64,000 nucleotides of DNA, taken from Nitrospirota bacterium (GTDB lineage Bacteria > Nitrospirota > Nitrospiria > Nitrospirales > Nitrospiraceae). The notes beneath the pieces were generated by a model, which worked only from the letters and a program-made list of their open reading frames with translations, was not told where the DNA came from and made no database searches. The stretch spans positions 4,417-68,416 of the forward strand of contig NSIK01000018.1 of NCBI GenBank assembly GCA_002737345.1, read 5' to 3'. The position numbers and the translations under genes are program-made. Of this stretch, positions 32,390 to 48,724 are shown in pieces (position 1 is the stretch's first letter; the number at the start of each line of letters is the position of its first letter).

Positions 32390-33628
32390 CTACTTCGCCG
32401 TCGAGATATTCGCCACAAACTTCACGATCTCGATCGACTGGAAGACCGGATCTTGCGAGCCTTTGGAGGACTCCGCTTCGACTCGCTGCAGGAAGGGAGC
32501 TGGGCCAGTGATCGGCGCATAGTTGAGGGTGACTTCGACATCAAAGGTCTTGGTGTCTTTCGGCGTGGGAAAGGTAAAGGTCTCGACGCGTGTCTCGTCC
32601 GGCTTCAACACTGTATCCTCGAGAACTTTGACCGCCTCGAAGTCGAAACTGGTCTTCTGCCCCTTGGCATCCTGATAGACCCGCCCATAGACCCGCTTGT
32701 CGGCAAAGACGCTCTTTAGATTCTTTCCTTTGATATCCAGCTCCAGCGCCATACTCGCCCAGGCTGGATGGGTAGTCGGCAGGCTGTGCGGGACAAGACT
32801 CTGCACCTTCACCGTGACGATGGTCTTGTCGCCATCGATTTTCGTCTGCACGTCCAACTTAGCTGCTTCCTGGCGGAGCTTGCCGATACGCCCAGGGAAT
32901 GTATGGTTCGCGGTTTTCCGCTTCTTCTCGCCGTTGGCCGACTCCCCCACCTGCTCCGGCATGTGGCAGCTCTGGCATTCCCTGCCGGACTTCACGGCTT
33001 TGCTCTGATCCCAATTGCCCAGCAGATCATTGCTCTTGCCTAAGTTGGCAGCAGACGGCACAGACTGGTGGCAATTGAGACAGAGATCGGACTTCTGAAA
33101 GAGCCCCAGCTCCATCGACTGGTGAGCCAGGTTCTGCACAAAGTCCTTATAGGGACCGTAGAGCGTCTTGCTCCCTAATTCGTACTTGGGCTCAGGCGGC
33201 TGTTTGGTCCGATCGACCTGTTTGATCAAATGGCATTGCGCACAGCCCACCCCATCCAGCGAAGGGTCGCCGGCCTTGGCCTGATCGATAAAGAGCTGGA
33301 CCTGTTCTGGGAATTCGCGCACATGCGGCGCATGGCAGCGGAAACAGAGGGCCTTGTCTTTTCCTCCCGGAGACGCCAGGAACGCATCGAGCGAGGCGCG
33401 GAAGGCCGGGGAATGAATGGACTTCGAGAGCGGCGAGGTTTCCCATTCTTCAAACACGCGCTCATGGCAGCGCTTGCACTTGCTGGAGCTGGGAAAGGCC
33501 TTTTCAAGGGTGGGCTTAGGAACCTCTTTCGCATAGAGGACATGATCGAGCCACTGCGACAGGCACAAGGCCGCCACAATCACTGCGCCAATCCCAAGCT
33601 TCACACCCACCGAATGTCGTCCCATCAT
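32390..33628 (-). CDS. Pentaheme c-type cytochrome, tandem paralogue 1
   Basis: A 412-residue protein with an N-terminal hydrophobic segment (residues 9-24, signal peptide or anchor) and five heme sites: CKRCH 51-55, CFRCH 95-99, CAQCH 129-133, CLNCH 183-187, CQSCH 218-222. The heme-free C-terminal half (about 240-412) is beta-rich. DGVGCAQCHLIKQVDRTKQP matches EGIGCASCHLIKQVEQTKNS in the next gene upstream, so the two arose by tandem duplication. It is expected in the periplasm as an electron carrier. The upstream paralogue ends 22 bp away. Confidence 0.88.
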   Translation of the reverse strand: MMGRHSVGVKLGIGAVIVAALCLSQWLDHVLYAKEVPKPTLEKAFPSSSKCKRCHERVFEEWETSPLSKSIHSPAFRASLDAFLASPGGKDKALCFRCHAPHVREFPEQVQLFIDQAKAGDPSLDGVGCAQCHLIKQVDRTKQPPEPKYELGSKTLYGPYKDFVQNLAHQSMELGLFQKSDLCLNCHQSVPSAANLGKSNDLLGNWDQSKAVKSGRECQSCHMPEQVGESANGEKKRKTANHTFPGRIGKLRQEAAKLDVQTKIDGDKTIVTVKVQSLVPHSLPTTHPAWASMALELDIKGKNLKSVFADKRVYGRVYQDAKGQKTSFDFEAVKVLEDTVLKPDETRVETFTFPTPKDTKTFDVEVTLNYAPITGPAPFLQRVEAESSKGSQDPVFQSIEIVKFVANISTAK

Positions 33629-33650
33629 GCAGCCTTTTTACTTCAACAGC

Positions 33651-34955
33651 TCAGAGATTTTTCGCCCGATACGTTAAGAGGCGTGGCTGCGTATATTCGT
33701 CAAAAATTTTCTTGGCAAGCTCCCGCTCTTTATCCGTCGTCAAGGTGGCGAGATACTTTTCCTTGAGCGCGGGCTCCGGTATCGGGATCAACGCATAGTT
33801 TAAGACCGCTTCAATTGAGGCAGCCGTCGTGCCGGCCGGGAGCACCAGCGAGAAGGGCACTTTCCTCGTGTGGCCGCCCTTGATGAACGGGTCTGGAATC
33901 GGGCCGCGGAGAATCTTGTCATAGGGCAACCCGAACTGCTTGGTCTCTTCCTTCAACACCTTACCCTGCGCATCCTTGGCGGTCAGGATCAGATAGAACT
34001 GCTTGAGCGTCGGATCTCCGTCCGGAAAACTGTGCGGAAGGCTACCGACTTTCACCAGCGCCGTCCCCTCCACCGCCGAGACAGACTTGGTGGTCTCAAG
34101 ATCCACGCGGGGCATCCATTCGGCCTGGAGGTTTCGATTCTTGATGAGCGTGCCGGGGATCACCACGCCGCGGAACCAATGGCGGCCGATCGCGCGGGTC
34201 ATGGACCCGCGCCGCGACGTGGAGCTCCCTGTTGAGGGTTCCATATGGCAGTCCTGGCATACCGTCCCCTGCAAAATCTCCCCTGCCAGATCCTTCTGCG
34301 TCACATCCTTCACCTTATCGAAGTGACAGGAGGCGCAATAGTTCGCGCCACGAAACAAATCCGACTGCATCGCAGGATGAACGAGGTTTTCCTCTGGGTC
34401 CGCATAGGGGCCATAGAGCATCTTGCCAGGCTCGATCTTGAACGACGGCGGGGAATTTTTCGTCTGCTCGACCTGTTTGATCAGATGGCAGGAGGCGCAG
34501 CCAATACCCTCTACTTGCGGCTTGCCTGCCAACACCTGCGCCACGATCTTTTCGGCATGTTGCGGGAACACGGTCGTCGAAGGCACATGACAAGAAAGAC
34601 AGCGGCGACGCTCGTCGGAAGTCGGATTGGTCTGAAGCCAGACCCCCAACACGGTGCGGAAGACTGGCGACTCCAGCGAGGCGCCGTGCAAGAGCGCCGC
34701 ATCGACTCGGCCAGCGGTCTTAAGATCCGGCGTCTGCTCGCGCACACCTTTCCACTCTTCATAATGCCGGTCGTGGCATTGCTTACAGTCTTCCGATCTG
34801 ATGAAGATCTTTTCGATTTCCTCCACCCAATCGGACGACGCCTTAACCTCTGACTTCTGGGCGATGACAGGGCCTTGAGACAGGCCCATGACGCCCATTA
34901 TCAGCAGAAAAAGAAAACCCGCCGCAATGCGATGTACCGGCCTGCGTCGTATCAT
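33651..34955 (-). CDS. Pentaheme c-type cytochrome, tandem paralogue 2
   Basis: A 434-residue protein from the ATG at 34955, with a signal peptide or anchor (IAAGFLFLLIMGVMGLS) and five heme sites: CKQCH 57-61, CLSCH 119-123, CASCH 153-157, CASCH 207-211, CQDCH 233-237. A beta-rich C-terminal domain follows. I chose 34955 because it lies 2 bp after the PDZ gene stop, with GGCGGGA upstream, and gives the best signal peptide; an ATG six codons earlier is possible. Transcribed with the PDZ gene and paralogue 1. Confidence 0.87.
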   Translation of the reverse strand: MIRRRPVHRIAAGFLFLLIMGVMGLSQGPVIAQKSEVKASSDWVEEIEKIFIRSEDCKQCHDRHYEEWKGVREQTPDLKTAGRVDAALLHGASLESPVFRTVLGVWLQTNPTSDERRRCLSCHVPSTTVFPQHAEKIVAQVLAGKPQVEGIGCASCHLIKQVEQTKNSPPSFKIEPGKMLYGPYADPEENLVHPAMQSDLFRGANYCASCHFDKVKDVTQKDLAGEILQGTVCQDCHMEPSTGSSTSRRGSMTRAIGRHWFRGVVIPGTLIKNRNLQAEWMPRVDLETTKSVSAVEGTALVKVGSLPHSFPDGDPTLKQFYLILTAKDAQGKVLKEETKQFGLPYDKILRGPIPDPFIKGGHTRKVPFSLVLPAGTTAASIEAVLNYALIPIPEPALKEKYLATLTTDKERELAKKIFDEYTQPRLLTYRAKNL

Positions 34956-34957
34956 GA

Positions 34958-35407
34958 TCAATCCCGCCTGCATCCGACGAAATGGAAATTCACACCCCAC
35001 CCGACCGGATCGCCTGGATCGGCCGACTCATAGGTGCCAATGGTGAAGTTGCATTCTTTCATCCCGCGCTTGATCGCTTTTCCAAAGTCGAGCATGTTCC
35101 TAATCTCGGTTTTGTCGATTTCCTTGATGACGGACCGGACCTTGATGCCGGCATAGTCGGCGCGCGAGTTTCCAATCACTTCAAACACGGCGACACCCTG
35201 CGCCTGGTCCAACTTCAATTCTCTTTTAATCTCTTCGTCCACATCTCCGACGATCATGCCGAAATCTTCCCCCAGCTTCGCGGCTTCCTCTACGGTCATC
35301 GGCGCCAATTCACCCGCTGACGCAAGACCACTCACTAGTCCCAGGCTGAGTCCAAAACACAAAAAAAAGGCCCTTCCGCTCCGAAGGGCCTTTGTGCGAG
35401 CGCTCAC
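34958..35407 (-). CDS. Exported PDZ-domain protein
   Basis: The mature part is a PDZ-like domain of about 115 residues: LKLDQAQGVAVFEVIGNSRA and DYAGIKVRSVIKEIDKTEIR form the peptide-binding barrel seen in HtrA-type proteins, but no protease domain is present. ALRSGRAFFLCFGLSLGLVSGLASA would be a good signal peptide. The start is uncertain: GTG at 35407 keeps the positive n-region, TTG at 35362 avoids the terminator hairpin that lies inside this stretch. It could recruit or hold the cytochromes encoded immediately downstream. Confidence 0.7.
   Translation of the reverse strand: MSARTKALRSGRAFFLCFGLSLGLVSGLASAGELAPMTVEEAAKLGEDFGMIVGDVDEEIKRELKLDQAQGVAVFEVIGNSRADYAGIKVRSVIKEIDKTEIRNMLDFGKAIKRGMKECNFTIGTYESADPGDPVGWGVNFHFVGCRRD
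35361..35393 (-). terminator. Rho-independent terminator inside the 5' end of the PDZ gene
   Basis: On the minus strand AAAGGCCCTTC (35393-35383) pairs perfectly with GAAGGGCCTTT (35376-35366) around a 6-base loop, followed by a run of eight T (35368-35361). A textbook terminator 68 bases after the stop of the EB_dh gene at 35461. Confidence 0.85.
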
Positions 35408-35460
35408 TGAGCCGATACGAAGATCCTCCAACGTGTGCGCCTTCCCACTATCGTCAAAAA

Positions 35461-36285
35461 TTAGAGTTTCACAAGCGGATCGATCACCAACTGAAACCAC
35501 GGCGCGACAGATTTCTGCCCGTTCCGTTCTTTGTTCTCACCGTTCCACACGGCAAAGGACACGGTTTGGATCCGGCCTGGAATGAGCTTGGCTTCGTTCT
35601 CCTGCTCTTCGCTCACCAGGGGTCGGCGCATGACCACATGCCAGACTCCGTCTTTCCAGACAGCGCTGCCCTGGACCCGCCCCTGCTTTTCTTTGGTCGT
35701 TAAGGTACTGAAGCCTCCACCGATGAGGTCTTCAACCGACGAGACCCGCCGCGGAATGACTTCGAACGTCCGCACGCCTTCACGGGCCCTCTCCGAAGCC
35801 CGGGCGGTCCGGCGATCGATATCGCTCTGCCAATCGGCTTTCCAATGCCAGATATTGATGTAGTGATCAAGCTGGCCCATGCAGAAAAATGCTGGGGCAT
35901 CGCCGAGCGGCAACCCGATCGCGACGCCGTCGCGAAAAGTTCCTGGCGTCAAACGATCGTTCTTCGTGTTGTCCTGCCATTCCAGCAGAAACGCGATTTC
36001 GCTGCCGTTGTGGAGCGTCCGCACCGTTAAAGCCCGCGCCGTCGGGTCAGGCCAGACCGGTCTAGTAATGACCTGTCCGCTCAAAGGAAGAGTCATTGGC
36101 GACACGGTGACCCAGGCGGCATCCTCCGGCCCAACCGGCAGCTCCCCCTCGACGAAATGCGCACGAATGACCATCCCCTCGGAACTGACGAGGGGCACGC
36201 CGAAGCCGACGAACACGCTGGCAACGACCAGGATGAACAGGAGCAACAGTACCGGGCGGGAATCAATCTTCGTCGTACGCATCAT
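35461..36285 (-). CDS. Exported heme-b EB_dh-domain protein (NxrC-like)
   Basis: A 274-residue protein with a signal peptide or anchor (residues 11-30) and an ethylbenzene-dehydrogenase-gamma-like domain, which binds one heme b in enzymes such as NXR, EbdC, DdhC and SerC. MTLPLSGQVITRPVWPD, EIAFLLEWQDNTKND, FFCMGQ and FAVWNGENKERNGQK match the same segments of the NxrC-like protein at 42028. The Met of CMGQ and the Lys of NGQK are candidates for the two axial heme ligands. It lies 91 bp downstream of the NHL gene. It may be a second gamma subunit or a separate electron carrier. Confidence 0.82.
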   Translation of the reverse strand: MMRTTKIDSRPVLLLLFILVVASVFVGFGVPLVSSEGMVIRAHFVEGELPVGPEDAAWVTVSPMTLPLSGQVITRPVWPDPTARALTVRTLHNGSEIAFLLEWQDNTKNDRLTPGTFRDGVAIGLPLGDAPAFFCMGQLDHYINIWHWKADWQSDIDRRTARASERAREGVRTFEVIPRRVSSVEDLIGGGFSTLTTKEKQGRVQGSAVWKDGVWHVVMRRPLVSEEQENEAKLIPGRIQTVSFAVWNGENKERNGQKSVAPWFQLVIDPLVKL

Positions 36286-36376
36286 GCAAGGTCCTCGGGT
36301 GACCGCGTGAGTACATCGTGAGGGGCTCAGAATAGGACAAAGCCCCAGCGAGACTAGTCTGACTGCGTGTGGGTGA

Positions 36377-37630
36377 CTACCAGAGTTTCACGCGGCGAAT
36401 TTTGTTTTCGCCACGCTCACAGACATAGAGATAGCCCTGGGAATCCAGCGAAAGCCCAACGGGCGAGTTGACGACGGCCTCGATGCCGAGCAGTCCATCT
36501 CCATGCTTCACGGTCCCCGACGATTCTTTCGCCACAAACCGCGCCGCGCCGCAACCGCCCATATTCTTATCTTCGTACCCGCTGTCTCCGTTGCCCGCCA
36601 CCGTCGTAATCACGCCAGTCGCCACATCCACTTTGCGCACGCGATGGTTCATCGTGTCGGAGATGTAGAGATTGTCCTGCTGATCGACCACCACAGCTTC
36701 CGGCGCATGGAGCATGGCTCTGATCGCCGGCTTGTCGTCACCGTCGTAGCCGTACCGGCAGACGCCGGCCACGGTCGAGATGATGCCGGTCTGGTGGTCG
36801 ATGCTGCGGACGCGATTGCTGCCTTTGTCGACGAAAATGATATCGCCTTTCCCATTCACCGTAAGTCCGACAACATCGTAGATGCGGGCTTCCAGCGCGG
36901 GCTTGCCATCGTCGAGGTACATAGACATGTCTAAACCGTCCGAACAGACCGGCATAAGCCAGCCATGATCGTCGCTGAAATCGATGCCGATAGCATCGCC
37001 GGAGAGCACGACCAGGTTGCGCGCCACGAGCGGCTGCTCGCGGGCTTCGTCTTCGGCTGTCCAGGCCCCTGCCACCGTCGTGACCATGCCGGTCTTGGGA
37101 TCGTAGCGGCGGATCCGGTGCGCCTGAGTATCGGCAATGTACATCACGTCGTGAGGATCGAAGGCAATGGCGGCCGGCCACGTAAGATTGGTCTCCAACG
37201 CCGGGCCATCCCCATTGAAGCCATGTTGACCGGTGCCGATGATCGTCGTGATGATGCCGGTCTCGTGGTCGATTTTTCTGATGCGGTTGCTGCCGGAATC
37301 GCAGATATAGAGATCGTTGTGCGAGTCGAACGCCACGTCGAGCGGCAAATAGAGGCCCGCCTCCCCGCAGAGGCCTTCGTCGCCGCTATAGCAGGTTTCG
37401 CCGATACCGGCAAAATTATAGAGAGTGCCCTCCTTGAGGCTCACCCGTCTGATGCGATCGGAGCCAGACTCGGCAAAATAAAACCAGGTCTCGTCCTTGT
37501 CTAATGCGGCGTGATGGGGCAAGGGAATCCCCGACTTGACCGCCCGCTTCCCATCGCCGGTGCTCCGGGCCTTGCCGTTGCCTGCGAAGGTTTCGATATA
37601 GCCGACTGCGAGCTGGAGTTCGGTTTCCAT
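36377..37630 (-). CDS. NHL-repeat beta-propeller protein
   Basis: A 417-residue protein of about six NHL repeats; each carries a variant of LYICDSGSNRIRKID followed by GIITTIIGTGQHGF. There is no signal peptide, so it is either cytoplasmic or exported with a partner. NHL propellers are scaffolds or ligand-binding platforms. It stands between tatA and the EB_dh gene in a tight same-strand run, suggesting a role in assembling the respiratory proteins encoded here. No catalytic motif seen. Confidence 0.88.
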   Translation of the reverse strand: METELQLAVGYIETFAGNGKARSTGDGKRAVKSGIPLPHHAALDKDETWFYFAESGSDRIRRVSLKEGTLYNFAGIGETCYSGDEGLCGEAGLYLPLDVAFDSHNDLYICDSGSNRIRKIDHETGIITTIIGTGQHGFNGDGPALETNLTWPAAIAFDPHDVMYIADTQAHRIRRYDPKTGMVTTVAGAWTAEDEAREQPLVARNLVVLSGDAIGIDFSDDHGWLMPVCSDGLDMSMYLDDGKPALEARIYDVVGLTVNGKGDIIFVDKGSNRVRSIDHQTGIISTVAGVCRYGYDGDDKPAIRAMLHAPEAVVVDQQDNLYISDTMNHRVRKVDVATGVITTVAGNGDSGYEDKNMGGCGAARFVAKESSGTVKHGDGLLGIEAVVNSPVGLSLDSQGYLYVCERGENKIRRVKLW

Positions 37631-37656
37631 AGACCTCAGACCTTAATCCCGGCTGA

Positions 37657-37950
37657 TTAGCCGCGTGAAACTGATTGAACGGTCTCGACTGGCTGCGCCA
37701 CTGGCGTTGCGGCCTGCACGGTCGGCGCGACGATCGCTGGCTGCGGCGCCGCGGTCGTCTGCTGCTGAGCCGCTTCTTGAGCGGCCAGGGCGTCTGCTTC
37801 GATCTGGTCCGCCTCATGCACGGACTTCTTGAAACCCTTGATCGCCTTGCCGATCCCCTCGCCCAGCTGCGGCAACTTGCCTGCGCCGAAAATGATCAGC
37901 ACAATGAAGAGGATCAAAATCAACTCTGTAAAACCAAGACTCCCAAACAT
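37657..37950 (-). CDS. tatA: Twin-arginine translocase subunit TatA/TatE
   Basis: A 97-residue protein with the family layout: one N-terminal transmembrane helix ([18 protein letters not shown]), the hinge [10 protein letters not shown], an amphipathic helix ([18 protein letters not shown]) and a long Ala/Gln/Pro-rich tail. TatA forms the pore that exports folded cofactor-containing proteins. No tatB or tatC lies nearby. Its place in the NXR-associated cluster fits export of folded molybdoenzyme subunits. Confidence 0.93.
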
Positions 37951-37978
37951 GGTGTGTGCCTCCGTCTGAATGGGTAAC

Positions 37979-38785
37979 TTAGGATGTGGTCTCTTTAGCC
38001 CGCTTGGAAAACCGTTCCTTCAACCGATTTCTTGCCTGTTCAGCCTGCTCGAACATCTTGGCCTTGTCGTAGACGCTGATCAAATTATAGTAGGCCAGCG
38101 GCTCCTGGGGATTCTGCTCGACGGCATCCTCCATGACCTTGATAGCGAGGTCCGTCTTCTTGTGATTCATCGCCAGCTCCATCAGCTTAAAACTGCCCTC
38201 CAGATGCTTCGGGTCCAGTTCGAGCGTGCGGATGTAGCACTGAATGGCCATGTCGATGGTGTTATAGTCCGAGACCTGCGGGTTGTCGAGCTCGACATAG
38301 ACCCCAGCGAGATTGTACCAGGCCATGGGATCGTCCGGGGTGATCTCCACCAGGCGCTCGTAATAATCCTTGGCTTCCATGAACTTTTTTTTGTCGGCAT
38401 AGACCCGACCGAGATTGAATAGCGCCAAAACATCGTGAGGAAAGACCTCAAGCGCATGCTTGAACTCGGTTTCCGCTTCATCCGTCATGGCTTTCGTCGC
38501 GTAGATCGTGCCGAGATTCGAATAGTACATCGCGAGCGAGCGGTTCATTTCGGCGCGGAGGCCCTCCGCCATCTCAATCGATTTCTTGACCTCGACGAGC
38601 GCATCGTCCATCCGGCCCTTGCTGAAATAGAGTTCGCCCAACCGGCAGCGAGCCTGAAAATCGTCCGGCTCAATCGCCAGCAGTTTTTCAATCTCGGCAA
38701 TTTCTTCGTCAGGATTCAACGGCTGATCGCCGGGATCGACAACGGTCTGACCTGGATCGGAAACAGAAGAGGTTGGTTCGTTCAT
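37979..38785 (-). CDS. TPR-repeat protein
   Basis: A 268-residue soluble protein made of about five to six tetratricopeptide repeats (for example [21 protein letters not shown] and [17 protein letters not shown]) after an acidic N-terminal lead. No signal peptide or membrane segment. Probably a scaffold for assembly of proteins from this cluster. It is 28 bp upstream of tatA and 26 bp downstream of the membrane protein gene, so all are likely one transcript. Confidence 0.88.
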
Positions 38786-38811
38786 ACGATTCCCTATAGT
38801 AAAAAAGTTCG

Positions 38812-39933
38812 TTAGGTATGTCCGCCCGCGAATGAATCCGGCGTCCCGATCACTGGCGCGTTCACCACCGGCGCCGAATCAGCCGCATCGCGTCGAGGCC
38901 GGTCCATGGTTAAGAGCATCACGCCGAGCACCACCATGAGCGTCAAATTCGAGTACAGCAGCGCATAGCCCGCAATAAACATCAGCCCGATCCCATAGCC
39001 GGCGAGCCGCCCCATCGTCAGGAGCTTAATGACCGTGTAGGCCCAGCACAGCAGGCCTGCCATATAGAGCGCAAAGGGAAGGAAGAACGTGTAGCCCATG
39101 CCGAACTGAAAGATCCACCCAATGCCGTCCGCCGCTTTCCGAATGCTGGTGGCGAGCCCCGGGTCATACTGTTTGAGTAGATAATCCAGGAACAGCATCA
39201 GCGTAAAAGTGGACCCGGCGGTGGCCCAAAACCAGATGGCGCGGCGGCGCTGCTGCTGATTGCGCGTCCGAAACGAGACGCCCCGCCCGTAGGCCCAAAA
39301 CACCAGGATGCTGGACAGGACCATCAAAGCCTCGCCTGCGCGATGGGCCTCGTAGACCAGGGGCGGCGCCGCCACGGTCCCGCTGAAACTATAGATCGTG
39401 GATACGATCTGATAATACAGCCAGCCCCCGATCCCCAGGAGATAGGTGAGCCCCATCGCGCGATGAGACCATTCGGTATGAGCCGAGAGATACTCCGTCA
39501 TCAGACAGACCAGCGCAACCAGGGCCACGAAGTTATAGATCGCCGATCCCAAAAACGCGGGAGGGACCAACAGGAAGCCAGCCGTGAGAAGCAAGAGAAG
39601 CGTCACAGCGGGGACGACGATCCGGTTCGAGCCCACGAACCCGCGCCCAGCCATCCGATTGACGACGCCCACGGCCAGGGCGAGGAACAACAGAATCGCC
39701 ACGGCGTTGAGCAGCCACTCGCCGATCCCTGTCAAAGCCGTGAAGGTCGGAATGATCCACTCATGCGTCTGCGCCAGTTTGCTGAGATGCATCCCTAATC
39801 GCGATACGAGTCGATAGAGGATCAACTCCGAGAAGGAGACGATCAGGACGAGCTTGATCGTGTACTGGAACAACAACGATTGGTCATTGATCCGTCCCGT
39901 CATCCGCTCAATTATGGCATTCGCGGCACTCAT
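38812..39933 (-). CDS. Polytopic membrane protein of unknown function
   Basis: A 373-residue protein with roughly nine to ten hydrophobic segments across its length (first near residues 23-43, last near 333-350) and short tails. Several His sit near helix ends (HEWSHRA-like stretches, for example TEWSHR and YEAHRAGEA), which could bind heme, but no family signature is clear. I do not recognise it. Its place between a radical SAM gene and a TPR gene in the NXR-associated run suggests a membrane partner of this system. Confidence 0.8.
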   Translation of the reverse strand: MSAANAIIERMTGRINDQSLLFQYTIKLVLIVSFSELILYRLVSRLGMHLSKLAQTHEWIIPTFTALTGIGEWLLNAVAILLFLALAVGVVNRMAGRGFVGSNRIVVPAVTLLLLLTAGFLLVPPAFLGSAIYNFVALVALVCLMTEYLSAHTEWSHRAMGLTYLLGIGGWLYYQIVSTIYSFSGTVAAPPLVYEAHRAGEALMVLSSILVFWAYGRGVSFRTRNQQQRRRAIWFWATAGSTFTLMLFLDYLLKQYDPGLATSIRKAADGIGWIFQFGMGYTFFLPFALYMAGLLCWAYTVIKLLTMGRLAGYGIGLMFIAGYALLYSNLTLMVVLGVMLLTMDRPRRDAADSAPVVNAPVIGTPDSFAGGHT

Positions 39934-39979
39934 GCGGTCTATCCTTATAGGCAGCTCGAATTATACCGTCGAACCCGCA

Positions 39980-41761
39980 TCACAATGGCGTCGGCTGCGG
40001 CACGCCCACTTCTTGCGCCTTGGCCCGCGCGATGTACAGCAACCCATCCGCCATAGAGTAGTTGAACGGCAGCTCGCATACGACTTCACTGATATTTTCG
40101 TAGACCTGCTGATAAAGGGCTTCCGATTCATCGGGCGTCATGCCTTCGGACACTTCATAGAAAAATCCCAGACTCAAGTCCTCCGCCGACGGGCGCATGA
40201 TGCGCCGAATCCCGTAGCTGCCGGGGTCGCTCATGATCGGCGCTTCTTTTTCCAAATCGAAGAGGCAGGGCTGGCACGAGAATCCGTAGGAATTGTGCAG
40301 CCGCTCGTTCTCAACGATGAAGTTCATCGTCTCGCGCGCTTCTTCTTCTTTTTCGGTCGGGAATCCCACGATGATGTAACAGTGGACCGCGATCCCCAGA
40401 TCGACACAATCGTCGGCGATGCGCCGTACCCACTCCTGCTTGATCCCCTTCTTCATGAAATCCATCACCCGCTGATTGAAGGACTCCAACCCGAAGACGA
40501 TCTTCAAACAGCCGGCATCCTTCATCGAGGCCAGGAGTTCCCGCGTCAGGTGCTTCTCGAAGCGCATCTCGCAGGTCCACTTGATGTCCAGCTTCTTATC
40601 GATGATCTGCTGGCACAACCGTTTGGTCGGCGAGAGGGCGAAACATTCGTCGGTGAAGAAAAACCGGCTAGCGCCATAGCGCTGCGTGAGCCATTCCAAT
40701 TCCTCGACGGTGCGCCCCGGTTCTTTCTGCCGGAAATTCTGGTGGTCCAGCGTAAGAGCGCAGAACGCACAATCCTTGTAGTAACAGCCGCGCGAAAACT
40801 GCACGGGCAAGACCGGCTCCGGCGATAGATACAGACCCAGCGGAAAGCCATCGTAGTTAGGCGCCGGCAACTGATTGATATTCTCGGAGTAGAAGGGCTG
40901 GTTGACCGTGATCTTCCCGTTCTGGCGATAGATCAAGTTCGGGACCTTACTGAAGTCCTTTTTCCCATCCAGCTGATGGACCAGTTCAAGCAAGGCCGTT
41001 TCGCCCTCGAAGACGATGATATCGTCGGTCAGATCGAAGAGGCTCGGGCAGCGGCGCAAATTATCGACCAACCTGGTGAAGATGCTGCCGCCGATGGTCA
41101 GATGGATATTGGGCGCGGCTTCCTTAATCAAGCGACAGAGCGTCAACCCAGGAATAATCTGCGAGGTCGCCGTAATCGAGACGCCAATCAAGTCCGGCTG
41201 ATCCCCGATGATCGATTTCAGAAAGCGCTCGCGGAACAGTTTGATGTAGGGGTTCTGGGATTCATCCTTGATGATCTTCATCAAGTCTTTGGACGAATAG
41301 ATGGAGCAATTGCCGAATTGATTGTCGACGACCGTCAGCCTGGTCGGGAAGTAGAGCGTGGAGAGGACCTCCAGCCATTTATCGATAAGAAACAGACTTT
41401 CTTTATAGGACTCGAGATCGTAGAAGCCCTCCCCTCGCAGGGTCTCCTTGGCCGGCTCGATCCGGTCGATGAGATAAGGAAAGCGGTCCAGCGACTCGAC
41501 GATGCGCGCCAAGTGTTCAGCGCTTCCCGCTCCCGTATCGCCGGTATGGCTCTGCTCGAGGGCGCGCTGTTTATCGACCAATTCCTGATAGAGCTCGGCC
41601 CCGTAGGATTGGGTGACGACTCCGTCTAAAAGCTCGATACCGAGATCACGTTGGGAGACATTATTGACACCGCCTTGCATCAAGAACCCCGTCAAGGATG
41701 GGAGGCTCAGGTAGGGCTGTGATGGATGCCAGGTTGGAGGAAAAAGCAGTGAGACTTTCAT
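39980..41761 (-). CDS. B12-binding-type radical SAM protein
   Basis: A 593-residue protein. The N-terminal part (about 1-230) has the flavodoxin-like layout of a cobalamin-binding domain (LIGVSITATSQIIPGL, TIGGSIFTR), though the DxHxxG cobalamin motif is not obvious. The radical SAM core begins at Cys326, Cys331 and Cys334 (CYYKDCAFC, CX4CX2C), which bind the [4Fe-4S] cluster that cleaves SAM. FFFTDECF and VHCYIIVGFPTE are core strands. Substrate unknown; cofactor or protein modification for the neighbouring enzymes is a reasonable guess. A gap of 46 bp separates it from the membrane protein gene. Confidence 0.88.
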   Translation of the reverse strand: MKVSLLFPPTWHPSQPYLSLPSLTGFLMQGGVNNVSQRDLGIELLDGVVTQSYGAELYQELVDKQRALEQSHTGDTGAGSAEHLARIVESLDRFPYLIDRIEPAKETLRGEGFYDLESYKESLFLIDKWLEVLSTLYFPTRLTVVDNQFGNCSIYSSKDLMKIIKDESQNPYIKLFRERFLKSIIGDQPDLIGVSITATSQIIPGLTLCRLIKEAAPNIHLTIGGSIFTRLVDNLRRCPSLFDLTDDIIVFEGETALLELVHQLDGKKDFSKVPNLIYRQNGKITVNQPFYSENINQLPAPNYDGFPLGLYLSPEPVLPVQFSRGCYYKDCAFCALTLDHQNFRQKEPGRTVEELEWLTQRYGASRFFFTDECFALSPTKRLCQQIIDKKLDIKWTCEMRFEKHLTRELLASMKDAGCLKIVFGLESFNQRVMDFMKKGIKQEWVRRIADDCVDLGIAVHCYIIVGFPTEKEEEARETMNFIVENERLHNSYGFSCQPCLFDLEKEAPIMSDPGSYGIRRIMRPSAEDLSLGFFYEVSEGMTPDESEALYQQVYENISEVVCELPFNYSMADGLLYIARAKAQEVGVPQPTPL

Positions 41762-41927
41762 GCTAAATCACTACCAGTTAGGTGAAAATTACGGAGTTAT
41801 CTCAAGAAAATTCATCTATTTCTATACACTCCGCCACCAAGCAAATGCAACCATGGGCGCCGGCCCCCTGCCTATTGCGAAGAAGCCAAACGTATAATCT
41901 TGGTAGCGAATCGCCTCCGCAGAAAAA

Positions 41928-41970
41928 GAGAAAGCCCCAGCTCTGGCTGATGCCGAACTGGGGCTTTCTC
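41928..41970 (-). terminator. Rho-independent terminator after the NxrC-like gene
   Basis: A perfect 13-bp inverted repeat, GAGAAAGCCCCAG (41928-41940) and CTGGGGCTTTCTC (41958-41970), with a 17-base loop, followed in the minus direction by TTTTTCT. It lies 57 bases after the stop at 42028. The rest of the 266-bp gap before the radical SAM gene is AT-rich and probably holds that gene's promoter. Confidence 0.8.
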
Positions 41971-42027
41971 GCTACACTGTCACTCGCACCTTAAGGGTAC
42001 GGGTAGTCTCTCCAGAAACCGGTTGCC

Positions 42028-42981
42028 CTACTGCAACTTCAGGGTAAACCAGGTGGAGAGCGCCTTCATGCCGTTACGTTCGACGTTGTTGCCGTCCCAG
42101 ACCGCGAAGGCGACTGGCACGGACGCGCCGGACTTGAACTGGGTATCGTTGGCATCACCGGTCTCCAACGTGCGCTTGACCACTACGCGCCACGTCGGAC
42201 CGCTGTACCCGCCGCCCTTGACGGAGCCTGATGGCTCCCACACGCCGTTTCCGAAGACATCCTGATGCGCTTGCGTGGTCAGGGTGCTGAAGCCATTGGC
42301 GTTCAGATCCTCGACCGAGCTCACGCGCAGCGTCGGGTCAGACATGATGTTGCCGGACCAGATACCGGTATTGAAAGGCCCAAGGCTGCGACCGATCCGG
42401 TCAGGATAGGTCACGCCGCCCGCAGGCTCTTCGAAATAGTAGTCCCAGAAAATGCCCGGGTATTGATCGTCCACGTCCCAAATACCAGCGCTATCCTTGC
42501 CGAGATCCTTCTGCCACTCTGCGTTCCACCGCCAGATGTTGGTGGTGCCGCCGGACTGGCCCATGCACTGGAAGGGGGGCGCGCCAGCCGTATTGACTGG
42601 GAACATGATCGCGACCTGGTCTCGGAAATCCTGAGGACCGATGGTCGTATCGTTCTTGGTCTGATCGTTCCACTCTAAACGCAGGCCGACTTCTTTACCG
42701 TTGGTCATGGCCTTCACGAACACCGACTTCACCGAAATATTCGGGTGCATCGGTGTGGTGATCAGCTGTCCGCTCAACGGAATAATCACGCCAGGGACGC
42801 TCTCCCAAACTGGGTTCGCGCCGTCCAGGGGAATCGCTCCCTTGATGGCCTTCGCCGGAATCGTGACCGGTTGGCTGATAGCCAACGGCACCTGCCCGAT
42901 CGTCATCATCCCGCCAACGATCAACGCAGAGAGAAGAATGCCAAAAACTACATGCTTACTGTGTGTCTGCACAACTTCCAT
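42028..42981 (-). CDS. nxrC: Putative nitrite oxidoreductase gamma subunit (heme-b protein)
   Basis: A 317-residue protein with a signal peptide (residues 10-32, VVFGILLSALIVGGMMTIG) and an EB_dh gamma-type domain. NXR gamma subunits bind one heme b in the periplasm and pass electrons from the iron-sulfur subunit to c-type cytochromes. Key segments: IIPLSGQLITTPMHPN, LRLEWNDQTKND, FQCMGQ (candidate heme Met), RVSSVEDLNANGFSTLTT, FAVWDGNNVERNGMK (candidate heme Lys). ATG at 42981 has GAGGAGG nine bases upstream. It follows a TorD-type chaperone by 87 bp. Assignment to NXR rather than another type II DMSO-reductase-family enzyme rests on context and general likeness. Confidence 0.8.
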   Translation of the reverse strand: MEVVQTHSKHVVFGILLSALIVGGMMTIGQVPLAISQPVTIPAKAIKGAIPLDGANPVWESVPGVIIPLSGQLITTPMHPNISVKSVFVKAMTNGKEVGLRLEWNDQTKNDTTIGPQDFRDQVAIMFPVNTAGAPPFQCMGQSGGTTNIWRWNAEWQKDLGKDSAGIWDVDDQYPGIFWDYYFEEPAGGVTYPDRIGRSLGPFNTGIWSGNIMSDPTLRVSSVEDLNANGFSTLTTQAHQDVFGNGVWEPSGSVKGGGYSGPTWRVVVKRTLETGDANDTQFKSGASVPVAFAVWDGNNVERNGMKALSTWFTLKLQ

Positions 42982-43068
42982 AGGACTACGCCTCCTCTCG
43001 ATTGAAAAATAAAAACGGTGGCTCACGAAAACTGATAGCACCTACAAACCCTTACGCTCATTTGATGG

Positions 43069-44040
43069 CTAGGCGGTTCCGACCGGCCCTCCATCTTCCT
43101 TATCTTTCCCTTGATCTTTTTTGTCCAAGAATGATTCGGCGCCCACTTCGTTCAACAACAAGCTGAGCTCGTTACCTTGGTCTTGCGCGCCGCACTCATA
43201 GGTCTGGCCTTCCGGCGCATTAAACGTCGCCGGGCGATAATCGGTTTCCGAATAGGGCTGCGGGACGACGCCCAGGAACGCGACTTCAAAGTCCATCCAT
43301 TCCGCCATCAAGTCTGCCACATGCTTATAGAGACCTGAATCGGCTTTCTTGACCAACATCCGGCAGAACAGCGGCACCCATCGCCCAATGTGGTTTTTGA
43401 CGAACTTCTTCTGCGCATCCAAAACGATCTGCGTCTTGTCCCCTCCATCGTGGCAGCGCGAGTAGGATTCTTTGTAGGCCATAAAATGCATGAACTCGAA
43501 CTCGACGCTCAAATGGTCGAGCCGTTCATGGATGTCCTTGGACAACTCAACCCCGAACGCCCGATAGAATCCGGCGATATCGCCCATGACTTGCGATTGG
43601 GCAAACACGTGGTCGTTTCCAAACAGGGTTTCGTAGGGGGGGCAATCGAGGGTAATAACGTTGCTGAACACGCGGCGATGCTCGGACTGGAGATCGCTGA
43701 GCTGCCAATTGACACATTCAGACGCCGCGACTTTTTCGAGCTCATCGAACTGCTTGCGCAGCAATACCAACTTCCGTTTCGCGCGTTCGCCGCCGATTCC
43801 GTCGAGCACCAGGCTCAGGGCATCGATCGCGTCCCGCCCGTCCTCGACAAATTCACCGCATTGCACGTACTCAAGAAATTCGTCGTCCTCGGGATAGAGC
43901 AGGCTCCACGACGCAAGCAAATAGAGCTTGCTGCGATTGAGGGCGCGTTCGACTGCAGGTGAGTCTTTAATGGTCGGTGGAGCCGCGATAATCGCAGTTC
44001 CTACTGGAGAATCTTTCGTCATGGGCTGCTTACTCGTCAT
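43069..44040 (-). CDS. TorD/DmsD-family molybdoenzyme chaperone
   Basis: A 323-residue cytoplasmic protein. The central 200 residues are all-helical with the TorD-type features: NRSKLYLLASWSLLYPEDDEF at the N-terminal helix, CPPYETLFGNDHVFAQSQ (the family CPPYET-like motif with the Tyr/Glu), GFYRAFGV, and DHLSVEFEFMHFMAYKE. These chaperones hold the apo catalytic subunit until the molybdopterin cofactor is inserted and before Tat export. N- and C-terminal extensions are charged and likely disordered. It has the strongest promoter in the window and lies upstream of nxrC, so it probably serves NXR. Confidence 0.9.
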   Translation of the reverse strand: MTSKQPMTKDSPVGTAIIAAPPTIKDSPAVERALNRSKLYLLASWSLLYPEDDEFLEYVQCGEFVEDGRDAIDALSLVLDGIGGERAKRKLVLLRKQFDELEKVAASECVNWQLSDLQSEHRRVFSNVITLDCPPYETLFGNDHVFAQSQVMGDIAGFYRAFGVELSKDIHERLDHLSVEFEFMHFMAYKESYSRCHDGGDKTQIVLDAQKKFVKNHIGRWVPLFCRMLVKKADSGLYKHVADLMAEWMDFEVAFLGVVPQPYSETDYRPATFNAPEGQTYECGAQDQGNELSLLLNEVGAESFLDKKDQGKDKEDGGPVGTA

Positions 44041-44122
44041 GAGAATCAGCTTCTCGGTTTATCCTGCTGCCTGATGTGGAAATCTTGAATATCACGCATC
44101 AAGGATTTTGCAGATTTGCGCC

Positions 44123-44151
44123 ATAATAGGCAGCCGCCCTGGGATTGTCAA
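44123..44151 (-). promoter_or_regulatory. Strong sigma70-type promoter for torD-nxrC
   Basis: On the minus strand TTGACA (44151-44146, perfect), 17-base spacer, TATTAT (44128-44123, 5 of 6). The leader to the ATG at 44040 is about 75 bases. The adjoining stretch 44160-44230 is unusually AT-rich for this genome and could hold activator sites; no other feature is seen in the 232-bp gap. Confidence 0.8.
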
Positions 44152-44272
44152 GCACACGGATGACTCGCGTAATTTAAAATCTAAGATGATGATTTTTCAG
44201 CTTAATTTTCACACTTTCTCGCACGATTGATTCCTGATTCTCCCTCTTACTTTTGCCTGACGCTTTGATTGC

Positions 44273-44872
44273 TCACGCAAGCGGCCGTGCCAGCAACCTG
44301 AACGGCGTCACACGAATCGCCACCTGATCGTTCACGGTCCGGCAGACCTGTTCGCATAGGCCGCACCCAACACAACGTTCAGCCGTCACTTTCAATTGCT
44401 GCATATCAAAGTCCATCGATAAGGCATCCGTAGGACATTTAGAGGCACAGGCATGGCATCCCTGCCCTGCCGTGCAGACACGATGGGAGACGATGGCTAG
44501 GCCCATTCGAACCTGATCGGGCCCACTGACGGCAAGCAATGCCTCTGTCGCGCAGGCTGCAATACAAGGCACATCCGCGCAAAGATAGCACGGGATCTGA
44601 TCTGCAAAAATGACCGGAGTGCCATCCTGCTGGTGGAACGTGATCGATCCGTGAGGACAGACCGTCGCGCAATCCCCGCACTTCGTACACCGCTCTAAAA
44701 ACAGCGTCTCATCTACCGCCCCGGGAGGACGCAACCAATCCGTCCGCACCAGTGGCGCCGATCGTTCCGGGACAGCATCCTGTTGCTTGGAAAACTCCTG
44801 AGCCGCCTTAGCAACAGAGACCACCGAGTCCTTCAGGAAATCACGCCGGCCATATGTCGGATCGTTTACCAC
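44273..44872 (-). CDS. NapF/NapG-like ferredoxin with four [4Fe-4S] motifs
   Basis: A 199-residue protein with 16 cluster cysteines in four groups: C62/65/68/72, C95/98/103/107, C133/139/142/146 and C167/170/173/177, so four [4Fe-4S] clusters. The N-terminus has RRDFLK, a near-perfect twin-arginine motif, but no hydrophobic core follows it (DSVVSVAKAAQEFSKQQ), so Tat export is doubtful. NapF-type proteins help insert iron-sulfur clusters or load the catalytic subunit; NapG types pass electrons. The start is GTG at 44872 with AAGGG upstream. It follows the HELLH protein gene by 10 bp. Confidence 0.87.
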   Translation of the reverse strand: MVNDPTYGRRDFLKDSVVSVAKAAQEFSKQQDAVPERSAPLVRTDWLRPPGAVDETLFLERCTKCGDCATVCPHGSITFHQQDGTPVIFADQIPCYLCADVPCIAACATEALLAVSGPDQVRMGLAIVSHRVCTAGQGCHACASKCPTDALSMDFDMQQLKVTAERCVGCGLCEQVCRTVNDQVAIRVTPFRLLARPLA

Positions 44873-44882
44873 AAGAGTGCCC

Positions 44883-45881
44883 TTACATCACGCCGTCGGC
44901 GCGCAACTTGTAGACCTCGACGCACCGGTCGCAGGCCCCGAATTCGATATCCCAGCCCGGATGATTCTCGCGAATAAAATCAAGCACGTACGACTCAATC
45001 TTATTACCCATATCTTCGACCCATGAATAGGTCGGAAATCGGCACAAGGGGCACGGGAACCCCGGCATCAACATAACTTTGTTTTCGGTTTCCGGAACTT
45101 CACCGCCCTCGACATCCACGGCGCGATCCATCACGCGCAAGGTGTCCGAGGCCATTTCGATCAATTCAGAGTGGGTAAAGAAACTCGTCTGCCATAGACC
45201 CTCGAACACAGACTTCAACTGTGGCGCGGGGATTTTGCGATACCAGGAGCGGAACTCTTTGAACCGGTCTTCCTTCCGCAGCATCGGCTCTTTGCCGGCG
45301 GCCGTCAGACGGCTGTCGACAGTGAGACTCCATAAAATACGATAACGATGGAGAATGAGGGTTTCTTCGCCGGGATTCTGTCCGACCTTGGTATCAGGAT
45401 CATAGCCAAAAACCGGGTCCAACATATCCGAGATATGCAGCAACTCATGACGACAATAGCGCGTGAGCGCGGGATCGTAGAAGCGACGCGGAATGAGCTT
45501 GATCCCGACGCCCTTTAATCCTTTTTCTTCGAACTCCCGAGCCATCTCATGCTCGACGGAGCCCCACTTCCTAAGAATGTCGACGCCTTCCTGATCTTCC
45601 TTGAGCACGCCCTTAACCAGGACGATACCGACCCGTTCTTTCAGCAGGGGATATTCGTTGAACGCATCCCGGATGATGTCGGAGAAGCCCCAAGTCCCGA
45701 ACATATACTGGTAGAGCTTCTTAAACTCGCTCTCCCGATCGTCGAGCGTAAACTTCTCGTAGATGGGATCGGCCAGCTCGTGAAATTCCTTATAATAGGT
45801 CGGGTCGCCTTCGCGCTCCGTCTTTTCGACGAACGAGTCGATGACCTCTTGCAGCAATGCTGGCTGAAAACGCAGTTCCAT
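44883..45881 (-). CDS. Uncharacterised protein with HELLH motif and C-terminal zinc ribbon
   Basis: A 332-residue soluble protein I do not recognise. RYCRHELLHISDML (residues 141-154) contains HExxH, the zinc-binding signature of many metallopeptidases, in a helical context. The C-terminus carries CPLC (277-280) and CDRC (317-320), a likely zinc ribbon. ATG at 45881 has AAGGG five bases upstream. It sits 10 bp before the NapF-like gene and near torD-nxrC, so a role in maturing that enzyme is an inference from position. HExxH may also be structural rather than catalytic. Confidence 0.75.
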   Translation of the reverse strand: MELRFQPALLQEVIDSFVEKTEREGDPTYYKEFHELADPIYEKFTLDDRESEFKKLYQYMFGTWGFSDIIRDAFNEYPLLKERVGIVLVKGVLKEDQEGVDILRKWGSVEHEMAREFEEKGLKGVGIKLIPRRFYDPALTRYCRHELLHISDMLDPVFGYDPDTKVGQNPGEETLILHRYRILWSLTVDSRLTAAGKEPMLRKEDRFKEFRSWYRKIPAPQLKSVFEGLWQTSFFTHSELIEMASDTLRVMDRAVDVEGGEVPETENKVMLMPGFPCPLCRFPTYSWVEDMGNKIESYVLDFIRENHPGWDIEFGACDRCVEVYKLRADGVM

Positions 45882-47284: not shown

Positions 47285-48724
47285 CTAGGCATTTCCCGGG
47301 TCGTCCTTCGCCGGGAGAATGCCGTAGCGTTTGCACTTTTCCCAGAGGGCCTTACGAGAGATACCGAGAAGCTTCGCCGCTGTCGTCCGGCTCCCCTCTA
47401 CCCGTGCGAGAACCGAGACAATATATTCCCGCTCGAACTGTCCCCGCGCCCTCACCAGCGAAGTCAGCACGCGCTCCTCGCGATTCGCCCCCGTCAGGCC
47501 TTCGCTGCAGAACCCACACGACTCTTGAGGGAGCCCACCCGTATAGGGACAGGACTGAAAACCGCAGAGGTCAGCCGGTTGAATCATCTCACGGTCCCGA
47601 CCCAACGCCACCGCCCGCTCAATCATATTTTCCAATTCCCGCACATTCCCGGGAAACGAATAACGCAAGAAGAGTCGGCGCGCCAGGGCGGAAAACCCTT
47701 TCACCGTCTTCTGCATCTTGTGAGCGCACACTTTCAACACATGCTCCGCGATGACCATGATGTCCTCTTGCCGCTGGCGCAAGGGCGGAATCACGATCTG
47801 CACGACGTTCAAGCGATAAAACAGATCTTCTCGGAACCGCCCCTGCGACACTTCCTTGCGTAGATCCTTCTGCGTCGCACAGACCAGGCGCACGTTGACG
47901 TCGATCGAGTCGTTTCCCCCGACACGTTCGAACTGCCGTTCCTGGAGCACCCGCAACAGCTTCACCTGGATAGCCGGAGAAATTTCCCCGATTTCGTCGA
48001 GGAACAAAGTCCCGCGATCCGCCAGCTCGAATCGTCCACGCCGCTGCTTCATCGCCCCGGTGAAGGCCCCCTTCTCGTGGCCAAAAAGCTCCGCCTCCAG
48101 CAAGGTTTCCGGCAAGGCCGCACAACTGACCTTAATCAGGGGATGCGTAGCTCGCTGGCTGTTTTGATGGATGGCATTGACCACCAGCTCCTTGCCTGTG
48201 CCGCTCTCTCCCAGAATCAACGTCGTGGAATCCGTGCCGGCCACCAGCTTGACCTTATCGAGCACCGCGCGCATTTGACTGCTCGCACCGAGGATACCCG
48301 CGAAGCTGAACTTATCTTCCAGCGCTTGCTTAAGGTCCTGATTCTCGCGCCGCACCCCCACCGCACGCCCCACCCGCTCGATGATCAATAAGAATTCGTC
48401 CATCGCAAACGGTTTGGTGATGTAGTCGAAGGCGCCGAACTTCATCGCGCCGACCGCCGTCTCCACCGACGCGTGGGCGGTAATCACCACGACCTCCGTC
48501 TGGGGCGAGTGCTCCTTGGTCCCGATGAGCACCGTCAGGCCGTCCACGCCCGGCAGACGCAAATCGGTAACCACCAAATCAAAGCACCGCCGCCGGATGG
48601 CGTCGAGACCTTCCGTGCCGGATGCCCCCGTTTCCACCTCATGGCCGGCGGCTTCCAGCGCATCGGCCATCGAGAGTCGCATCAACGGCTCGTCATCCAG
48701 GAACAGAATGCTAAGCTTAATCAT
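47285..48724 (-). CDS. NtrC-family sigma54-dependent response regulator
   Basis: A 479-residue transcription activator. Receiver domain (1-120) with acidic pocket DDE (10-12) and phospho-acceptor Asp54 in VVTDLRLPG; AAA+ domain (about 145-385) with Walker A GESGTGKE, the sigma54-contacting GAFTGA loop and DEIGEIS; and a Fis-type helix-turn-helix at the C-terminus (SRTTAAKLLGISRKALWEKC). It activates sigma54-RNA polymerase at enhancer-controlled promoters. Its ATG overlaps the kinase stop (ATGA), so the pair is co-translated. Target genes are unknown. Confidence 0.95.
   Translation of the reverse strand: MIKLSILFLDDEPLMRLSMADALEAAGHEVETGASGTEGLDAIRRRCFDLVVTDLRLPGVDGLTVLIGTKEHSPQTEVVVITAHASVETAVGAMKFGAFDYITKPFAMDEFLLIIERVGRAVGVRRENQDLKQALEDKFSFAGILGASSQMRAVLDKVKLVAGTDSTTLILGESGTGKELVVNAIHQNSQRATHPLIKVSCAALPETLLEAELFGHEKGAFTGAMKQRRGRFELADRGTLFLDEIGEISPAIQVKLLRVLQERQFERVGGNDSIDVNVRLVCATQKDLRKEVSQGRFREDLFYRLNVVQIVIPPLRQRQEDIMVIAEHVLKVCAHKMQKTVKGFSALARRLFLRYSFPGNVRELENMIERAVALGRDREMIQPADLCGFQSCPYTGGLPQESCGFCSEGLTGANREERVLTSLVRARGQFEREYIVSVLARVEGSRTTAAKLLGISRKALWEKCKRYGILPAKDDPGNA

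What the first reader, a model, noticed from the sequence alone, without database searches (positions are those of the whole stretch)
32390..45881. NXR accessory cluster without catalytic subunits
A one-strand run brings together NxrC, a TorD chaperone, a four-cluster NapF-like ferredoxin, TatA, a radical SAM protein, NHL and TPR scaffolds, a second EB_dh heme-b protein, a PDZ protein and two pentaheme cytochromes. Seen: the genes and their tight spacing. Known: TorD, TatA and NapF-type proteins serve export and maturation of molybdoenzymes. Inferred: the whole run matures periplasmic nitrite oxidoreductase or a related enzyme and wires it to the respiratory chain. NxrA and NxrB are not in the window, so either they lie elsewhere or the cluster serves another enzyme.
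Basis: partly seen in the sequence, partly recalled or inferred. Interest (0 to 1): 0.7.

Follow-up and report, generated by a model that had tools for sequence, protein, structure and literature searches.

The report
Helper gene cluster for nitrite oxidation
This gene cluster holds the third subunit and likely helper genes of the enzyme that turns nitrite into nitrate; the enzyme's two main genes sit elsewhere in the same genome, and several of the helpers, including an unstudied protein that looks like a metal-dependent protease, lie right beside those main genes in distantly related bacteria.

Summary
A one-strand run of 13 genes (32390-45881) is present: NxrC, TorD, a four-cluster ferredoxin (closer to NapG than NapF), TatA, B12/radical SAM, NHL, TPR, a second heme-b (EB_dh) protein, a PDZ-like protein and two pentaheme cytochromes. 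nxrA and nxrB are in the same genome on another contig, one copy each. Gene order is the same in 41 of 41 Nitrospirales as far as fetched (36 show all 13 genes). The HExxH gene is in 137 of 143 Nitrospirales drawn and absent, with NxrA, from one family of that order. In anammox and NC10 bacteria it lies within 304 bp of nxrA in 31 of 34 loci carrying it; in Scalindua-type loci the radical SAM and NapG-like genes follow nxrA. The Nitrospirales cluster is in print (PMC12342949). In the paper searches named below I found no paper describing the HExxH or radical SAM proteins as NXR partners; these are the new leads, and their chemistry is inferred.

The parts
44883..45881 (-). HExxH/CxxC..CxxC protein, 332 aa, no known family; putative metal-dependent NXR maturation factor
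   Evidence: in 137 of 143 Nitrospirales drawn; within 304 bp of nxrA in 31 of the 34 loci (of 59 fetched) that carry it
44273..44872 (-). NapG/NapF-like four-[4Fe-4S] ferredoxin with Tat-like RR motif
   Evidence: near nxrA in 6 Scalindua-type loci
43069..44040 (-). TorD-type chaperone (type II DMSO reductase chaperone family)
   Evidence: PF02613 above cut-off, TIGR03482 75 bits, below cut-off; beside nxrB in other phyla
42028..43041 (-). NxrC, heme-b gamma subunit
   Evidence: Kuenenia NXR chain 7b04_C E 5.6e-34; PF09459
39980..41761 (-). B12-binding radical SAM enzyme (CX4CX2C)
   Evidence: PF04055 + PF02310; best NCBIfam TIGR03975, below cut-off; ortholog in 41 of 41 Nitrospirales and in 13 of 20 genomes of other phyla (12 of 12 anammox-type, 1 of 1 Nitrospina, 0 of 7 others)
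38812..39933 (-). integral membrane protein, unknown family
   Evidence: no Pfam/NCBIfam hit; 41 of 41 Nitrospirales plus G034; 6 hydrophobic segments in a simple scan
37979..38785 (-). TPR protein
37657..37950 (-). TatA
   Evidence: PF02416
36377..37630 (-). NHL-repeat beta-propeller protein
   Evidence: PF01436
35461..36285 (-). second NxrC-like heme-b (EB_dh) protein; by gene order probably the published nxrC_1
   Evidence: PF09459, TIGR03477 145.6 bits, below cut-off; the equation with nxrC_1 (NITMOv2_3617) is inferred
34958..35500 (-). PDZ-like exported protein (start uncertain)
   Evidence: weak PDZ, DegP-type HMM below cut-off
33651..35000 (-). pentaheme cytochrome c (start uncertain)
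   Evidence: 5 CxxCH, PF13435/PF14522
32390..33628 (-). pentaheme cytochrome c
   Evidence: 5 CxxCH, PF13435
46103..47203 (+). WD40 protein, divergent, kept beside the cluster
   Evidence: PF00400; reverse-strand WD40 next to the HExxH gene in 41 of 41 genomes
47285..48724 (-). sigma-54 response regulator, next to the cluster in many but not all relatives
   Evidence: PF00158; seen in 26 of 41 genomes (several stretches end before it, but at least 8 genomes with about 6 kb covered lack it); homologs near NXR or radical SAM genes in anammox
48721..51897 (-). PAS/HAMP sensor histidine kinase
   Evidence: Pfam; seen in 25 of 41 genomes
44123..44151 (-). promoter-like site TTGACA-17-TATTAT before torD-nxrC
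   Evidence: at least 10 of 12 matches with spacing 17 in 29 of 40 loci
41928..41970 (-). terminator-like hairpin after nxrC
   Evidence: best hairpin-plus-T of -18 kcal/mol or stronger in 30 of 38 loci, no shuffled control

Best explanation
This is the NXR gamma-subunit, maturation and electron-transfer locus of a small-genome Nitrospirales bacterium. Shown: gene content, order, co-occurrence with NXR, and linkage of five of its genes to nxrA/nxrB in other phyla. Inferred mechanism: NxrA (Tat signal) and NxrB fold in the cytoplasm. TorD holds NxrA while Mo-bis-MGD is inserted. The HExxH/CxxC protein, which has no hydrophobic export segment and whose gene abuts torD and nxrA in anammox bacteria, acts on NxrA at the same stage, as a dedicated metal-dependent processing or quality-control protein. 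The radical SAM/B12 enzyme makes a modification, probably a methylation, on an NXR-related substrate. TatA boosts Tat export. Outside the membrane NxrAB joins NxrC (Sec-exported heme b), and the second NxrC-like protein and the two pentaheme cytochromes carry electrons onward. torD-nxrC may be a separately promoted and terminated unit inside the run, which would help explain why nxrC is expressed at the level of nxrAB. In Nitrospirales the catalytic genes lie apart from the rest, whereas nxrA, nxrB, torD, the HExxH gene and nxrC stand together in anammox and NC10 bacteria.
For: Own-genome nxrA/nxrB on C23 (NxrA best hit Kuenenia NXR-A 7b04_B). NxrC to 7b04_C. Same order in 41 of 41 Nitrospirales as far as fetched. 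HExxH gene in 137 of 143 Nitrospirales; both it and NxrA absent from 3 of 3 genomes of family f30 and from the 14 other same-class genomes given to the NxrA search. HExxH and membrane proteins absent from 9 of 9 Nitrospirota genomes whose only NxrA-like proteins are 38-42% identical. Operons NxrC-NxrB-TorD-HExxH-NxrA in anammox and HExxH-NxrA-NxrB-TorD-NxrC in NC10. Radical SAM (8 loci) and NapG-like (6 loci) genes after nxrA in Scalindua-type loci. NxrB-TorD-NxrC-HExxH in G034. Expression reports in PMC6606698 and PMC6423088 (passages).
Against: 7 of 41 Nitrospirales with the cluster gave no NxrA hit at 1e-50, and 5 of these 7 gave no NxrB hit either. nxrA fragments sit at contig ends in other genomes, so assembly loss is likely, but true absence is not excluded, least of all for G110, a one-contig genome with NxrB and no NxrA hit. 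G181 has NxrA and lacks both the HExxH and the membrane-protein hit; G266 and G362 have NxrA and the membrane protein but no HExxH hit. The radical SAM ortholog is missing from 4 of 4 NC10 genomes, the Acidobacteriota MAG, L159 and L160, so not every such NXR needs it. The HExxH gene was not found in 9 of 19 genomes of other phyla, among them L136 and L126 (NxrC-bearing Planctomycetota drafts) and L159/L160 (NXR-like operons). The two-component pair is not beside the cluster in all relatives. In Kuenenia the transcript drop was not reflected in protein amounts. No biochemical evidence for any accessory protein.
Confidence: 0.82

Rival explanations
1. The cluster serves another type II molybdoenzyme (ethylbenzene-dehydrogenase-like or nitrate-reductase-like), not NXR.
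For: TorD, heme-b gamma subunits and NapG-like ferredoxins also serve other enzymes of the DMSO reductase family (established knowledge); no catalytic subunit is among the window's ORFs.
Against: The own-genome search for PF00384 found three proteins. The 1149-aa frame on C23 matches NXR-A; the other two lie among nuo-like genes and look like NuoG (read by eye, label recalled, not tested by HMM). The HExxH and membrane proteins are absent from 9 of 9 genomes with only distant NxrA-like enzymes. In NC10 locus L145 the HExxH gene stands at the operon with the closer NxrA (1604 bits) and not at the more distant one (917 bits). The genome is 91.6% complete, so a further molybdoenzyme could be missing.
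Confidence: 0.05
2. Only TorD, NxrC, the HExxH protein, the NapG-like protein and perhaps the radical SAM enzyme serve NXR; the NHL, TPR, PDZ, membrane, second EB_dh and pentaheme genes form a separate respiratory or envelope module that shares the neighbourhood.
For: Only the first group was found linked to nxrA/nxrB in other phyla. The promoter-like and terminator-like sites divide the run.
Against: The genes keep one order in Nitrospirales: 36 of 41 show all 13, the other 5 as far as fetched. The published comparison lists the cluster, pentahemes included, as diagnostic for nitrite oxidation (PMC12342949). The membrane protein also follows the HExxH gene in G034.
Confidence: 0.3
3. The HExxH protein is a non-catalytic zinc-binding scaffold rather than a protease.
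For: No significant fold match; no evidence of a cleaved substrate; kustd1701 (assigned by gene order) was not detected in proteomics.
Against: H145, E146, H149 and D152 are invariant columns of the 35-sequence alignment. The weak Pfam hits and several top structural rows are HExxH metalloproteins, though below significance.
Confidence: 0.4

Closest known systems
Conserved Nitrospirales cluster NITMOv2_3614-3631 (N. moscoviensis; PMC12342949, section read)
   Same: NxrC, TorD, proteins of unknown function, two pentaheme cytochromes and a two-component system; reported as diagnostic against NXR-less relatives
   Different: This is a copy in a 1.67-Mb draft genome of 91.6% estimated completeness; the published text calls several members 'unknown function', whereas here two are tied to nxrA in other phyla. 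The equation with that cluster rests on gene content, as its sequences were not compared
Kuenenia nxr gene cluster kustd1699-kustd1713 (PMC8387239, PMC6423088; passages)
   Same: By gene order NxrC, TorD-like and HExxH genes (1704, 1702, 1701) in one transcriptional response
   Different: Contains nxrA, nxrB and NXR-T; TatA, NHL, TPR and pentahemes were not looked for there in Kuenenia itself; the radical SAM ortholog lies apart from the nxr operon in the three Brocadia-type genomes read
TorD/NapG/TatA accessory sets of DMSO-reductase-family enzymes (Nap, Tor, Ebd)
   Same: Chaperone, ferredoxin and Tat component
   Different: These sets, as I recall them, hold no HExxH/CxxC protein or B12 radical SAM (not tested)

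Membership tests
Nitrospirales NXR accessory cluster | nxrC and torD adjacent, apart from nxrAB | tested here: met
Nitrospirales NXR accessory cluster | genome encodes periplasmic NXR (NxrA with Tat signal, NxrB) | tested here: met
Nitrospirales NXR accessory cluster | two pentaheme cytochromes and a two-component system in the cluster | tested here: met
Nitrospirales NXR accessory cluster | expressed with nxrAB | not testable with these tools
   only published data for other strains (PMC6606698, PMC6423088)
NxrC / type II DMSO reductase gamma subunit | similarity to a solved NXR-C and a heme-b domain | tested here: met
   7b04_C E 5.6e-34; PF09459 above cut-off; but TIGR03477 142 bits, below its cut-off of 170
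   TIGR00402 67 bits against cut-off 102; NapG 110.7 against 269, also not met
SprT-like or other HExxH peptidase family (44883-45881) | reaches a family cut-off or a clear fold match | tested here: inconclusive
RiPP-maturation radical SAM C-methyltransferase (39980-41761) | reaches the TIGR03975 cut-off | tested here: not met
   160 bits against 281.85; it may work like a B12 radical SAM methyltransferase, but none of the NCBIfam subfamily cut-offs listed is met (best 25 of 29 shown)

The most novel reading that the evidence does not exclude
Periplasmic NXR has its own, so far undescribed maturation pathway: a dedicated HExxH/zinc-ribbon protein acting on NxrA together with TorD (found in Nitrospirota, Planctomycetota, NC10, an Acidobacteriota MAG and a Nitrospina genome), and, in the Nitrospira, anammox and Nitrospina lineages, a B12 radical SAM enzyme that places a methyl-type modification on NXR or a partner, as other such enzymes do on methyl-coenzyme M reductase.
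Probability: 0.3. Interest if true: 0.78.

Novelty: new member of a known kind. Interest (0 to 1): 0.48.

Why it matters
NXR makes virtually all nitrate in nature (PMC8387239, abstract), yet in the papers I opened the only named assembly factor is a TorD-like chaperone. A short list of genes that travel with nxrA across phyla turns 'how is NXR built, and what does heterologous NXR need?' into a testable question, and gives candidate markers to separate this clade of periplasmic NXR from look-alike enzymes in metagenomes.
Full report
What is there. All 13 ORFs of 32390-45881 are on the - strand. In transcription order they are: HExxH/CxxC protein, NapG-like ferredoxin, TorD, NxrC, B12 radical SAM, membrane protein, TPR, TatA, NHL, second EB_dh protein, PDZ-like protein, pentaheme cytochrome, pentaheme cytochrome. 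Intergenic gaps are 10-91 bp or small overlaps, except 232 bp before torD and 266 bp after nxrC. The first holds TTGACA-17-TATTAT; a site with at least 10 of 12 matches and the same spacing recurs in 29 of 40 loci, and the 11 others are all genus g2. The second holds a hairpin-plus-T stretch, -18 kcal/mol or stronger in 30 of 38 loci. By themselves such sites do not exceed chance in a consensus scan. So the run may not be one transcript: torD-nxrC looks like a nested unit, which fits the published expression of nxrC_2 at the level of nxrAB in N. moscoviensis (PMC6606698, passages). Upstream, a divergent WD40 gene is kept in 41 of 41 genomes; a sigma-54 regulator and histidine kinase (47285-51897) are seen in 26 and 25 of 41, partly because stretches end early, but at least 8 genomes with about 6 kb covered lack them there.

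Where are nxrA and nxrB? In the same genome (G000; 1.67 Mb, 38 contigs, 91.55% estimated completeness) on contig C23, while the window is contig C31. nxrA (1148 aa, with an N-terminal SRRQFLK Tat motif) and nxrB (431 aa) are adjacent. NxrA's best PDB match is Kuenenia NXR-A (7b04_B, 1579.5 bits); NxrC's is Kuenenia NXR-C. Distances in other genomes, worked out from the coordinates: about 25 kb in the four genus-g3 genomes with both on one contig (G055, G094, G141, G145), about 39 kb to nxrB in G060, and more than 430 kb in G081, G110 (nxrB), G137, G147, G149 and G155. Separate nxrAB and nxrC loci are a stated feature of Nitrospira (PMC6606698, passage).

Does the cluster track NXR? In an even draw of 158 Nitrospirota genomes the HExxH and membrane proteins are each in 42: 41 of 41 Nitrospirales plus G034. 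The radical SAM ortholog (72% identity or more) is in the same 41; paralogs of 35% or less also occur. NxrA (83% identity or more, fragments 82% or more) had a hit at 1e-50 in 34 of the 41; of the 7 without, 2 had nxrB and 5 had neither. The 9 other genomes with 38-42% NxrA-like proteins have neither helper. In a draw of 395 genomes the HExxH gene is in 138: 137 of 143 Nitrospirales plus G034. The six misses are three genomes of family f30, which also lack NxrA and the membrane protein, and three with NxrA (G181, G266, G362), of which two have the membrane protein. The 14 same-class, non-Nitrospirales genomes that I gave to the NxrA search lack it, and lack the HExxH gene. Gene order is shared: 36 of 41 genomes show all 13 genes (G065 and G125 across a contig break; the HExxH gene is in two pieces in G108), and in G110, G081, G143, G141 and G135 the fetched stretch ends earlier; G135 has an insertion between the NapG-like gene and torD.

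Linkage outside Nitrospirales. A scan with a Kuenenia NxrC stretch returned 59 named loci. With profiles built from the Nitrospirales proteins (single sequences for NxrA and NxrB), 34 of 59 carry the HExxH gene at 140 bits or more; 32 of these 34 also hold nxrA on the locus, 31 within 304 bp of it; 29 of 34 have torD within 200 bp or overlapping. Anammox order: NxrC-NxrB-TorD-HExxH-NxrA. NC10 order: HExxH-NxrA-NxrB-TorD-NxrC. An Acidobacteriota MAG (L149): NxrA-NxrB-TorD-NxrC-HExxH. Of the 25 loci without it, 13 by my reading end before the place where it would lie; L153, L154 and L158 carry distant NxrA-like genes (280-421 bits), L155, L156, L159 and L160 another NXR-like group (1306-1324 bits), and the rest are short or have NxrC alone. 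A whole-genome check of 19 of these genomes found it in 10, including the Nitrospina genome of L156 on another contig. In eight Scalindua-type loci (six named Scalindua, one Brocadiaceae S225, one Desulfobacteraceae) the radical SAM ortholog, and in six the NapG-like gene, follow nxrA. In 20 genomes of other phyla the radical SAM ortholog (45-51% identity, nearly full length) is in 13: 12 of 12 anammox-type and the Nitrospina genome; it is missing from 4 of 4 NC10, the Acidobacteriota MAG, L159 and L160. In three Brocadia-type genomes read it is followed by a histidine kinase and a sigma-54 regulator similar to those beside the window's cluster; orthology of these regulators was not tested by a tree. 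In G034, an incomplete Nitrospirota genome outside Nitrospirales, NxrB-TorD-NxrC-HExxH run together and another contig, overlapping by 47 bases, continues with a ferredoxin and the membrane protein; no NxrA was found there.

The HExxH protein. The 35-sequence alignment has invariant columns H145, E146, H149, D152, Y180, W184, R191 and H237 among others, and two CxxC pairs at 90% or more. A hydropathy scan shows no export or membrane segment. No family in Pfam or NCBIfam. The AlphaFold2 model has pLDDT 89.7, but no solved structure matches significantly; many of the top rows are HExxH metalloproteins, which is weak support for a zincin-like core. By gene order it corresponds to kustd1701, called 'unknown protein', whose transcript fell 5.5-fold with the rest of the nxr cluster and whose protein was not detected (PMC6423088, passages; the paper says the transcript changes were not reflected in protein amounts). 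That fits a substoichiometric assembly factor rather than a subunit.

The radical SAM protein. All 46 sequences examined have CX4CX2C instead of the common CX3CX2C (the usual motif is recalled). The best family models include B12 radical SAM C- and P-methyltransferases, all below cut-off. A methyl-type modification is therefore the likeliest chemistry; the substrate is inferred from linkage only.

Novelty. The Nitrospirales cluster is in print as diagnostic of nitrite oxidation, with NxrC, TorD, 'several proteins of unknown function', pentahemes and a two-component system (PMC12342949, section read). NxrC with TorD and a NapG-like ferredoxin is also in print (PMC8115096, passage). What I did not find in print, by the searches named in Tried and rejected, is the HExxH protein and the radical SAM enzyme as NXR-linked proteins across phyla.

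Noticed in passing
window 59668-63951: A cytochrome c / EB_dh fusion protein (595 aa) next to two further cytochrome c genes; it resembles the published alternative NxrC with two c hemes, and its N-terminal part matches a solved cytochrome, 6h5l_B.
   Followed up: partly
G000 (whole genome): The genome is 1.67 Mb at 91.6% estimated completeness, small for this group; a same-genus genome G161 is 1.8 Mb at 99% while others of the genus reach 4.4 Mb, so genome reduction within the genus is possible.
   Followed up: no
L004:15005-15833: Two small ORFs (126 and 123 aa) just after nxrB with no Pfam match.
   Followed up: no
L145, L148, L150, L159, L160 between nxrA and nxrB: An ORF of 91-149 aa lies between nxrA and nxrB in NC10 loci and in L159/L160; family not searched; it could be a further NXR-specific factor.
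   Followed up: no
L132:12161-12715 and other Scalindua-type loci: An ORF of 184 aa (L132) with a signal-like N-terminus between nxrB and torD carries only the CxxC..CxxC region of the HExxH family.
   Followed up: no
L159, L160: MAGs labelled Proteobacteria and Sulfuricaulis carry nxrA-nxrB-torD-gamma operons (about 1320 bits to NxrA) without the HExxH or radical SAM gene; possible proteobacterial nitrite oxidisers or periplasmic nitrate reductases.
   Followed up: partly
G034 C41/C53 (L053, L052): A Nitrospirota genome outside Nitrospirales seems to carry an NXR operon (NxrB 71% identical), with an Mrp-like ATPase and a histidine kinase beside it (labels by eye); possibly a further nitrite-oxidising lineage, or contamination.
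   Followed up: partly
G110 C1:3456928-3458184: A one-contig, 3.6-Mb Nitrospirales genome has nxrB but gave no NxrA hit at 1e-50; assembly loss or a real oddity.
   Followed up: no
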